This document shows positions 11,548 to 13,953 of a DNA stretch of 64,000 bases, piece by piece. The notes below the pieces were generated by a model, which worked only from the letters and a program-made list of their open reading frames with translations, was not told the DNA's origin and made no database searches. This DNA is from Sedimenticola hydrogenitrophicus (GTDB taxonomy: Bacteria; Pseudomonadota; Gammaproteobacteria; Chromatiales; Chromatiaceae). Numbering within the stretch: position 1 is the first letter of the stretch; each line of letters starts with the position of its first letter. A program made the position numbers and the translations under genes. The stretch is from assembly GCF_029017505.1 (NCBI RefSeq), contig NZ_JAQGEI010000004.1, positions 111,323 to 175,322 of the forward strand. Direction: 5' to 3'.

Positions 11548-12705
11548 ATGAATCAGTCTTTTGAGATCGGGTCCTTGAAGTTCGCCACGGTTGGCCGGTC
11601 CCTGTTTGCGGCCGCTATCGGCCTGCTGGCGCTGATGCTCGTGTTTTCCGGCGCGGTCCAGGCCGAGCGCATCAAGGATCTCGCCGCCATCGCCGGGGTG
11701 CGCACCAACCAGCTGCTCGGTTATGGCCTGGTGGTGGGCCTGAACGGAACCGGAGACAAGAGCAGCTCCTCGCCGTTCACCGAACAGAGCCTGAAGAGCA
11801 TGCTGAACCAGCTCGGTATCGTGGTGCCCCCCGGTACCCGGATCAACCCGAAAAATGTGGCGGCGGTATCGATCAATGCCGATCTGCCCGCGTTCGCCAA
11901 GCCGGGGCAGAAGATCGACATCACCGTCTCTTCCATCGGCGATGCCAAGAGTCTGCGTGGCGGCACCCTGCTGATGTCTCCCCTGAAGGGCGCCGATGGC
12001 CGGGTCTATGCCATTGCCCAGGGCAATCTGGTGGTGGGTGGCCTGAGCGCATCGGGTGCCGACGGCTCCAGTATCACCATCAATATCCCCAGCGTCGGGC
12101 GGATTCCCAACGGGGCCACGGTGGAGCGCACCGTCACCTCGGGTTTCAATCAGGGGACCTTCCTCACCCTCAATCTGCATGAGGGGGACTTTACCACCGC
12201 CAACCGGGTGGTCGAATCGATCAACCAGGCGATAGGTCCTGGCGCCGCACGGGCGCTGGATTCGACGTCCGTCCGTGTCAACACCCCCATCGACCCCAAC
12301 CAACGGGTCAGTTTTGTCTCGCTGATCGAAAATCTGCCGGTGGAACCCGGCGAGGTGGCGGCGCGGGTGATTGTCAACTCCCGCACCGGTACGGTGGTGA
12401 TCAGTAACCAGGTTCAGGTCTCGCCCGCCGCCGTCTCCCACGGCAGCCTGACGGTGACCATCAGCGAGAGCAATGAAGTCTCCCAGCCGGAAGCGCTCTC
12501 CGGCGGGACCACCACGGTGGTGCCGCGCTCGGACGTGAGCGTGGCGGAAGGCGGCAGCCGGATGTTCCTGTTCAACCCCGGCGTCACCCTCAACGAGGTG
12601 GTCCGGGCGGTGAATCAGGTAGGGGCGGCACCTTCCGATCTGGTGGCCATCTTGGAAGCGCTGAAACAGGCCGGCGCCCTCAAGGCCGAACTGGTGATCA
12701 TCTGA
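11548..12705 (+). CDS. flgI: FlgI, P-ring protein
   Basis: 385-residue periplasmic ring protein anchored to peptidoglycan, assembled with the help of FlgA. A signal peptide (hydrophobic residues about 20-40, cleavage near VQA-ER) precedes the strongly conserved IAGVRTNQLLGYGLVVGLNG block. Typical later segments are SLRGGTLLMSPLKGADG and the C-terminal APSDLVAILEALKQAGAL. ATG 11548 has aggtga upstream. The TGA stop shares its A with an ATG at 12705 that was probably the original flgJ start. Confidence 0.96.
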   Translation: MNQSFEIGSLKFATVGRSLFAAAIGLLALMLVFSGAVQAERIKDLAAIAGVRTNQLLGYGLVVGLNGTGDKSSSSPFTEQSLKSMLNQLGIVVPPGTRINPKNVAAVSINADLPAFAKPGQKIDITVSSIGDAKSLRGGTLLMSPLKGADGRVYAIAQGNLVVGGLSASGADGSSITINIPSVGRIPNGATVERTVTSGFNQGTFLTLNLHEGDFTTANRVVESINQAIGPGAARALDSTSVRVNTPIDPNQRVSFVSLIENLPVEPGEVAARVIVNSRTGTVVISNQVQVSPAAVSHGSLTVTISESNEVSQPEALSGGTTTVVPRSDVSVAEGGSRMFLFNPGVTLNEVVRAVNQVGAAPSDLVAILEALKQAGALKAELVII

Positions 12706-12716
12706 TGGATCTGGCT

Positions 12717-12897
12717 AGCCCGGATTTCTCACCACCGTGCGTCGCGAGGGCGTCGAGGCGCCGTTGTGACGGGGTGCACGGACCGGAGGGCGGCGGCCGG
12801 CGTAGCCAACACTACGTCAAGCCGGCTGGAGGGAGTACACCCCGTCATAACGAGCGAATCGGCGTCCGCAGTAGCAGGGTGGTGAGAAATGCGGGCT
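12717..12897. mobile_element. 181-bp palindromic element at the flgI/flgJ junction
   Basis: The outer 20 bases of each end (12717-12736, and 12897-12878 on the other strand) match with one mismatch. The next roughly 40 bases also form imperfect arms (gttgtgacggggtg against gttatgacggggtg). The centre has a gccggcgtag ... ctacgtcaagccggc stem. No coding capacity. It interrupts the frame between ATG 12705 and flgJ, and its right end contains the present flgJ ATG. No clear target duplication is seen. Confidence 0.8.
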
Positions 12898-13953
12898 GAT
12901 GCCTCGATCTACACCAGCATGGAGGGCCTGACGGCACTCAAGGCCCGGGCATCCGGGGATGCCAAGGGCTCGCTGGATGAGGTGGCGCGCCAGTTCGAAT
13001 CGCTGTTTGTGCAGCAGATGCTCAAGAGCATGCGCCAGGCCGGCCTGGGTGAAGGGCTGATGGACAGTGATCAGAGCCTGTTCTACCGCGACATGTATGA
13101 TCAGCAACTCTCCGTCCATCTCGCCGAGAGTGGCGGCATGGGACTGGCCGAGGTGATCAAGCGGCAACTGGGCGGTACTGCCGGGGCGGGCGGGGACGAG
13201 GGCTCCGGCAGCGACACTGATAGCGATATCGGCCTGCCGGTCAAGTCGATCGAGGATTATCGGCGCCTGGCGATGGCGGTGAAGCTGTATAGCGCCATGG
13301 AAGCGGGCAGCGGTGCAGCGGATAGGGCGGGCCTCGCCCGCCTCGACGGCATCGACCTGGCCGGTGGCGCCGACGGAACACCCCGTACCGATGCAGGGGA
13401 TAGGGCAGGCCGTGCCCGCCTTGACACCACGAAACAACCCGATCCGCGCCACTGGAGTCCCGAAGAGTTCGTCGAAAACCTCTGGCCTTGGGCCAGCGAG
13501 GCGGCGGGGCTGATTGGGCTCAAGCCCCAGGCACTGCTGGCCCAGGCCGCTCTGGAAACCGGTTGGGGGAAAAAACTGATCCGCACCGCGGACGGGGCGC
13601 CGGCCAACAATCTGTTCGGCATCAAGGCGGACCGGGGCTGGGACGGCGACCGGGTAAGTGTCGGTAGCCTGGAGTATGAGCAGGGCACGGCGGTGAAACG
13701 GCGGGCCTATTTTCGTGCCTACGAGTCGTTGCGGGACAGCTTCCATGACTATGTGGATTTCCTGCAATCGAACCCGCGCTATAGCGACGCGCTGGGCGCC
13801 ACTGAAGACAGTGCGACCTATTTCACGGAATTGCAGCGGGCCGGTTATGCGACCGACCCTGAATATGCGAATAAAATCAACGCGGTACTGAATGGGTCGG
13901 AAATGACCCGGGCGCTGGAAAGGCTCAAGCCAGAGGCATCACGGCCGCTATGA
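12889..13953 (+). CDS. flgJ: FlgJ, rod scaffold and peptidoglycan hydrolase
   Basis: 354-residue two-domain protein. The N-terminal rod-capping domain (residues about 25-95) shows VARQFESLFVQQMLKSMR and SLFYRDMYDQQLS. The C-terminal glucosaminidase domain (about 195-345) carries ALETGWG with the likely catalytic glutamate at residue 223, then NNLFGIKAD. It opens a hole in peptidoglycan for the rod. The linker holds two near-identical DRAG(L/R)ARLD stretches at 145-153 and 171-179, translated from a genomic palindromic repeat. The start ATG lies inside a repeat element with a ggtggtgag ribosome binding site. Without the element the gene would start ATGGATCTGGCT at 12705, giving MDLADAS. Confidence 0.93.
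   Translation: MRADASIYTSMEGLTALKARASGDAKGSLDEVARQFESLFVQQMLKSMRQAGLGEGLMDSDQSLFYRDMYDQQLSVHLAESGGMGLAEVIKRQLGGTAGAGGDEGSGSDTDSDIGLPVKSIEDYRRLAMAVKLYSAMEAGSGAADRAGLARLDGIDLAGGADGTPRTDAGDRAGRARLDTTKQPDPRHWSPEEFVENLWPWASEAAGLIGLKPQALLAQAALETGWGKKLIRTADGAPANNLFGIKADRGWDGDRVSVGSLEYEQGTAVKRRAYFRAYESLRDSFHDYVDFLQSNPRYSDALGATEDSATYFTELQRAGYATDPEYANKINAVLNGSEMTRALERLKPEASRPL
13322..13419. repeat. Two palindromic repeat units inside flgJ
   Basis: gatagggcgggcctcgcccg at 13322 and gatagggcaggccgtgcccg at 13394 belong to the intergenic palindrome family seen at 1322, 3450 and 8978. Both are in frame and encode the FlgJ linker. Confidence 0.75.

What the first reader, a model, noticed from the sequence alone, without database searches (positions are those of the whole stretch)
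12705..12907. A palindromic element at the flgI/flgJ junction supplies the flgJ start codon through its only terminal mismatch
Seen: the 20-base ends of the 181-bp element at 12717-12897 are reverse complements except at one base, where aaatccgggct has become aaatgcgggct. That change makes ATG 12889, the flgJ start, with a ggtggtgag ribosome binding site also inside the element. Joining 12716 to 12898 restores an uninterrupted ATG-GAT-CTG-GCT-GAT start whose A overlaps the flgI TGA, the usual coupling. The insert is 181 bp, not a multiple of three, so it broke the old frame. The old start now reads 64 codons and stops (12897-12899) just past the new ATG. Inference: flgJ was rescued by a mutation inside the inserted element.
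Basis: partly seen in the sequence, partly recalled or inferred. Interest (0 to 1): 0.78.

Follow-up and report, generated by a model that had tools for sequence, protein, structure and literature searches.

The report
Mobile element gave flgJ its start
A short mobile DNA element sits in the first codons of the flagellar gene flgJ, where eight related species have none, and the gene's reading frame now opens at an ATG that is part of the element's own standard end, which likely serves as the replacement start codon without any later mutation having been needed.

Summary
The palindromic 181-bp insert at flgI/flgJ is real. It belongs to a non-autonomous (MITE) family with 4-bp CTAG-type target duplications; two full-length relatives with the same ends carry an IS1380-family transposase. 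All 8 congeners examined lack it and open flgJ at the ATG overlapping the flgI stop (MDLASASIYT-like). Insertion and replaced start are therefore supported. The element most likely brought an SD-like GGTGGTGA and the ATG with it. In that sister species the copy opens the anmK frame the same way. A dctQ gene in another genus is a third case with empty congeners; moeA, DUF58, Iso_dh and hydrolase genes are weaker ones. Such starts are not significantly commoner than start-less frame-1 arrangements (8-9 against 3). The new RBS lies inside a very stable hairpin. I infer that ribosomes reading a 64-codon leader from the old start open it. A MITE end giving genes their first codons has one in-print precedent that I found (MITEAba12), so I file this as a new variant of a known kind.

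The parts
11539..12705 (+). flgI, upstream gene, stop TGA 12703-12705
   Evidence: ORF of 388 aa; 95.6% identical to the G001 protein
12705..12899 (+). old flgJ start ATG 12705 and the 64-codon leader ORF that it now reads, through the element to TGA 12897-12899
   Evidence: in 8 of 8 congeners the ATG at this place opens flgJ
12715..12718 (.). left copy of the 4-bp target duplication, CTAG
   Evidence: 47 of 94 paired elements have CTAG on both sides and 53 of 94 have identical 4-mers on both sides
   Evidence: full-length relatives with IS1380 transposase L107:2557-4298 and L128:2982-4695
12717..12736 (-). left terminal inverted repeat (reads GGTGGTGAGAAATCCGGGCT outward, the minority C form)
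12878..12897 (+). right terminal inverted repeat GGTGGTGAGAAATGCGGGCT, the common G form
12878..12885 (+). SD-like GGTGGTGA inside the right end (predicted ribosome binding site of flgJ)
   Evidence: predicted duplex with anti-SD ACCUCCUUA -8.0 kcal/mol, against -2.8 for the 20 nt upstream of the old start
12889..13953 (+). flgJ as now read, 354 aa, ATG 12889 in the element end
   Evidence: one copy of flgJ in this genome
12896..12899 (.). right copy of the target duplication, CTGA instead of CTAG; also completes the leader stop TGA

Best explanation
A 177-bp non-autonomous mobile element with IS1380-type ends lies between codons of the old flgJ start region that is uninterrupted in eight related species, and the flgJ frame now opens at an ATG that belongs to the common form of the element's end, so the element likely delivered a ready-made ribosome binding site and start codon when it inserted and no rescue mutation was needed. 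Shown: the insert and its ends, the empty site in 8 of 8 congeners, the family with CTAG-type duplications, and full-length relatives with an IS1380 transposase. Also shown: the prevalence of ATGCGGGCT ends, and the same arrangement at anmK in the sister species. Inferred: that ATG 12889 is the start used in the cell; that the old ATG 12705 is still translated, coupled to flgI, as a 64-codon leader; and that ribosomes on the leader unwind the hairpin which otherwise buries the new binding site and end 8 nt past the new ATG, so that flgJ stays translationally coupled to flgI. The new FlgJ begins MRADASIYT instead of MDLASASIYT, one residue shorter.
For: Congener junctions without the element, 8 of 8. 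Family, duplications and sizes: 94 paired elements, 53 with identical 4-nt flanks, 47 CTAG/CTAG, 32 of 180 and 8 of 181 bp. IS1380 transposase (NF033539, 405.8 and 386.9 bits, cut-off 180) in two elements with the same ends. ATG is the common state: G in 75 of 98 exact ends; 73 of 94 paired elements have G at both ends and 15 one C and one G. Sister copy with identical C/G ends, 180 bp, CTAG on both sides. It opens anmK as MRARQPPVSADLYIG where this genome's element-free anmK reads MPDREPPVSADLYIG, same length. dctQ in G384 opens MRASSKIKGLYLGIDQF while the 3 congeners in which the gene was found (of 4 searched) lack the element in the 75 nt shown. FlgJ shows no decay: full length, both domains, and polarised changes on this branch 12 synonymous to 6 nonsynonymous, against 11.5 to 8.5 on the G001 branch. 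Opening the binding site costs 40.7 kcal/mol in the free RNA and 11.3 when the left arm is held open as by a ribosome. The 64-codon leader overlaps the new ATG, and the G001 anmK leader ends TGA-GAA-ATG.
Against: No protein or expression data. The right-hand duplication reads CTGA, not CTAG, so at least one change occurred next to the element. The buried binding site could make flgJ translation poor, and the model costs are still 40.7 (ribosome at 12790-12818) and 28.9 kcal/mol (12840-12868) when the ribosome is elsewhere on the leader. An internal ATG at FlgJ residue 11 is an alternative start. The G in most ends comes from a sample dominated by a few metagenome assemblies, and the third base of the ATG is not better conserved than its neighbours.
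Confidence: 0.8

Rival explanations
1. One reading: the element inserted with AAATCCGGGCT at this end, broke flgJ, and a later C-to-G change inside the element made the ATG that rescued the gene.
For: The two ends of this copy differ exactly at that base; C is a minority state of the family, 19 of 98 exact ends.
Against: G is the common state (75 of 98). The sister-species copy at another locus has the same C-left/G-right pair. The second copy of this genome also has G. A broken flgJ would first have had to persist without decay, and the branch shows none.
Confidence: 0.06
2. FlgJ is started at an internal codon downstream of the element, most likely ATG at residue 11 (TSMEGL), and the element ATG is idle.
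For: An in-frame ATG lies 30 nt further on, outside the hairpin.
Against: Residues before it (ASIYT) are those of the congeners' FlgJ, and an SD-like site stands 3 nt before ATG 12889. I saw no such site before residue 11 by reading; no tool was used for this.
Confidence: 0.08
3. flgJ is silenced: the hairpin blocks translation and the open frame is only a recent relic.
For: Very stable hairpin over the binding site.
Against: Intact 354-aa frame, two domains, no excess of nonsynonymous change on this branch. No terminator-like site was found at 12600-13000.
Confidence: 0.06

Closest known systems
MITEAba12 of Acinetobacter and Moraxellaceae (PMC6382973; passages seen)
   Same: A short non-autonomous element whose terminal repeat, read outward, gives neighbouring genes their first four residues (MQQS) in three cases named there.
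   Different: Different element (113 bp, derived from ISAba12, predicted weak structure). The passages seen show no empty-site comparison for those starts and no built-in ribosome binding site; the authors stress an outward promoter.
Rickettsia palindromic elements (PMC10969869, passages seen)
   Same: Palindromic elements of about 150 bp inserted into protein genes with the frame kept.
   Different: They add an internal peptide; here the element replaces the start and is left as a leader.
Enterobacterial RU-1/RU-2/RU-3 small mobile sequences (PMC2759123, passages seen)
   Same: Small repeats fused to the ends of genes, including N-terminal fusions such as YP_0349.
   Different: There a longer stretch of element peptide is retained; here two codons and part of a third come from the element.
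IS1380-family insertion sequences (NF033539, PF13701)
   Same: Full-length relatives with the same ends carry this transposase.
   Different: The window element has no transposase gene, and no relative of the L107 transposase was found in the 9 genomes of the genus (a search with no positive control among those genomes).

Membership tests
MITE (non-autonomous miniature inverted-repeat element) | short, no transposase gene, terminal inverted repeats | tested here: met
   177 bp proper, arms 92% complementary over 24 nt; longest + strand frame inside is the 64-codon leader
MITE (non-autonomous miniature inverted-repeat element) | target site duplication | tested here: inconclusive
   Family: 53 of 94 paired copies have identical 4-nt flanks. 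This copy: CTAG left, CTGA right. Sister copy: CTAG both sides
MITE (non-autonomous miniature inverted-repeat element) | dispersed copies at unrelated sites, and an empty site in relatives | tested here: met
IS1380 family (as source of the ends) | autonomous element with the same ends and an IS1380 transposase | tested here: met
   L107:2557-4298 (1742 bp, left end exact to the 18th nt, right end exact) and L128:2982-4695 (1714 bp, one end with 5 mismatches), NF033539 above cut-off
IS1380 family (as source of the ends) | direct repeats of 4-5 bp (family range recalled; one member, IS1247, is listed with 5 bp in PMC3281130) | tested here: met
   4-bp duplications in the family
IS1380 family (as source of the ends) | transposition of this element by an IS1380 transposase | not testable with these tools
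   needs a transposition assay
Rickettsia palindromic element-like in-frame insertion | element translated inside the host protein | tested here: not met
   the flgJ frame opens at the element's end, and an in-frame TGA stands 6 nt before the ATG; met by another member of the family at L119

The most novel reading that the evidence does not exclude
The ends of this IS1380-type MITE family are portable translation starts: each common end, read outward, is an SD-like GGTGGTGA, a short spacer, ATG, two stop-free codons and a stop-free duplication in the ATG frame. An insertion in the first codons of an operon gene therefore swaps the start instead of killing the gene, and leaves a leader ORF plus hairpin that makes the gene depend on translation from upstream. 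flgJ, anmK and dctQ would be three independent products of this.
Probability: 0.4. Interest if true: 0.65.

Novelty: new variant of a known kind. Interest (0 to 1): 0.5.

Why it matters
If right, it shows a concrete way in which a mobile element lands in the first codons of a gene in a tightly packed operon and leaves it working: the element's end replaces the start codon. It gives a clean empty-site pair in sister species for two different genes, so the effect of a swapped start, a new leader ORF and a strong hairpin can be measured directly. It also warns gene annotators that MRAS/MRAR-type N-termini next to CTAG may be element-derived.

Tried and rejected
Rescue by mutation was rejected as the leading account. 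A structured RNA family: no Rfam match up to E = 1 at 12000-13500. A terminator or promoter in the element: none found by consensus at 12600-13000. Plasmid spread: no match of the 181 bp in PLSDB by blastn. An autonomous partner in the genus: no relative of the L107 transposase in 9 genomes (no positive control among them). General enrichment of start donation: of 245 distinct ends, outward frames of at least 100 codons were 26 in the ATG frame, 33 in frame 1 and 4 in frame 2, which is mostly closed by the TAG of CTAG. Pfam matches: 15 of 26 in the ATG frame, 7 of 33 in frame 1 (Fisher two-sided p = 0.006); of the four frame-2 ORFs only L199 was scanned. That difference is not itself start donation: in L041, L077, L081, L094 and L135 a likely native start lies downstream, L041 has no ATG at all, and L060 is a 5'-truncated gene. 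By my reading of N-termini and domain starts, 8 genes (9 with the ambiguous L152) have the element ATG as their only evident start, against 3 in frame 1 with no start of their own left (L083, L122, L148); one-sided binomial p = 0.11 and 0.07, not significant. L089 has no Pfam match and rests on a signal-peptide-like N-terminus alone. Literature: nine searches in open-licence PMC papers; the only match to the phenomenon that I noticed is MITEAba12.

Full report
What is there. The window holds flgI (11539-12705) and flgJ. Between the old flgJ ATG (12705, overlapping the flgI TGA) and the conserved ASIYT... part lies a palindromic insert with arms 12717-12740/12874-12897 and 12762-12779/12835-12852. 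It folds far better than shuffles. The flgJ frame opens at ATG 12889 inside the right arm and encodes 354 aa with Rod-binding and Glucosaminidase domains.

Empty site. In all 8 same-genus genomes searched (G001-G008) flgI is followed directly by flgJ, without the insert. The ATG overlaps the flgI stop and the protein begins MELASAAIYT, MDLASASIYT (twice), MDMPNASIYT (twice), MDMANASIYT (twice) or MNQLANASIYT. Here the frame begins MRADASIYT, one residue shorter than MDLASASIYT.

What the insert is. In 94 paired copies, 53 have identical 4-nt flanks and 47 are CTAG/CTAG; the commonest lengths are 180 (32) and 181 bp (8). L107:2557-4298 and L128:2982-4695 have such ends and carry an IS1380-family transposase (NF033539, PF13701). 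I therefore file it as a non-autonomous element with IS1380-type ends. Counting a 4-bp duplication the element proper is 12719-12895. The left flank is CTAG; the right flank is CTGA, so this copy's duplication is no longer exact, or the site was not a plain CTAG.

The rescue mutation is not needed. Of 98 exact ends in 80 loci, 75 have G at the critical base, 19 C, 3 T and 1 A. In 73 of 94 paired copies both ends have G, in 15 one has C and one G. The other two end copies in this genome are a 73-bp shortened element on C27, with G, and a single end on C2, with C. The sister species G001 has a 180-bp copy that differs by five substitutions and one missing base, and it has the same C-left/G-right ends. 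The state that makes the ATG thus most likely came with the element.

A second gene in the sister species. The G001 copy lies at the start of anmK. The upstream peptidase frame ends at the TAG of the CTAG duplication, and the anmK frame opens at the element ATG: MRARQPPVSADLYIG. This genome's anmK has no element and reads MPDREPPVSADLYIG, overlapping the upstream stop. In the 7 other genus genomes in which anmK was found (this one included) no element stands in the 90 nt shown; G005 gave no match.

How general. In 245 distinct ends the ATG frame runs at least 100 codons in 26 and frame 1 in 33. Pfam finds a family in 15 of 26 and 7 of 33 (p = 0.006). In five of the 15 a likely native start lies downstream and one is a truncated gene. 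I count 8 genes with the element ATG as the only evident start: flgJ, anmK, moeA (L099), two dctQ (L113, L187), an Iso_dh protein (L150), a secreted hydrolase (L154) and a DUF58 protein (L194), with an inorganic pyrophosphatase (L152) ambiguous. In frame 1 three have no start of their own left (L083, L122, L148). The excess is not significant. For dctQ in G384, the congeners G400, G289 and G176 lack the element in the stretch shown; G401 had no match. For moeA and DUF58 only more distant relatives or a paralogue were available; their aligned starts lie a few codons upstream and carry no element.

How it likely works. GGTGGTGA (12878-12885) is predicted to pair with the anti-SD at -8.0 kcal/mol, against -2.8 for the 20 nt before the old start. 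In the free RNA the binding site and ATG are buried (opening cost 40.7 kcal/mol). With the left arm held open by a ribosome at 12717-12745 the cost is 11.3; at two later positions on the leader it is 40.7 and 28.9. The old ATG still opens a leader of 64 codons that ends 8 nt after the A of the new ATG. In G001 the corresponding leader of 58 codons ends TGA-GAA-ATG. I infer that translation of the leader, coupled to flgI, opens the hairpin and feeds the new start. This step is untested. No promoter- or terminator-like site was found.

Constraint. Polarised by G003, FlgJ changes on this branch are 12 synonymous and 6 nonsynonymous, against 11.5 and 8.5 on the G001 branch. There is no sign that the gene has decayed.

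Known parallels. MITEAba12 ends give three genes their first four residues (PMC6382973, passages). Rickettsia elements insert in frame (PMC10969869, passages). RU repeats fuse to gene ends (PMC2759123, passages). A related review (PMC2229807) had no passage on start codons by my terms. PMC4133298 and PMC3281130 were searched by terms for IS1380 facts. The present case differs in the IS1380-type family, the built-in SD-like site, and empty sites in sister species for two genes.

Noticed in passing
L158 (G001:C39:84748-84927): Sister-species copy of the element at the start of anmK; the upstream peptidase frame ends at the TAG of its CTAG duplication.
   Followed up: yes
L119:3169-3348: A 180-bp copy lies in frame inside a Peptidase_M90 gene, whose frame stays open through the element (60 extra codons), much like a Rickettsia palindromic element.
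   Followed up: partly
L083, L122, L148: Frame-1 readings out of the element run into ApbE-, Peptidase_M28- and prepilin-like proteins, with possible starts inside or upstream of the element.
   Followed up: partly
G000:C27:55104-55176 (L002): A 73-bp internally shortened copy in the same genome, right end AAATGCGGGCT and CTAG flank.
   Followed up: partly
window 13954-14200: Between flgJ and flgK overlapping frames on both strands show similar peptides (AAKPLLHKW, AAEPLLHIHIR, GFAAKTFVP), as if another short repeat lay there; the mechanically listed flgK frame carries a long extra N-terminus from it.
   Followed up: no
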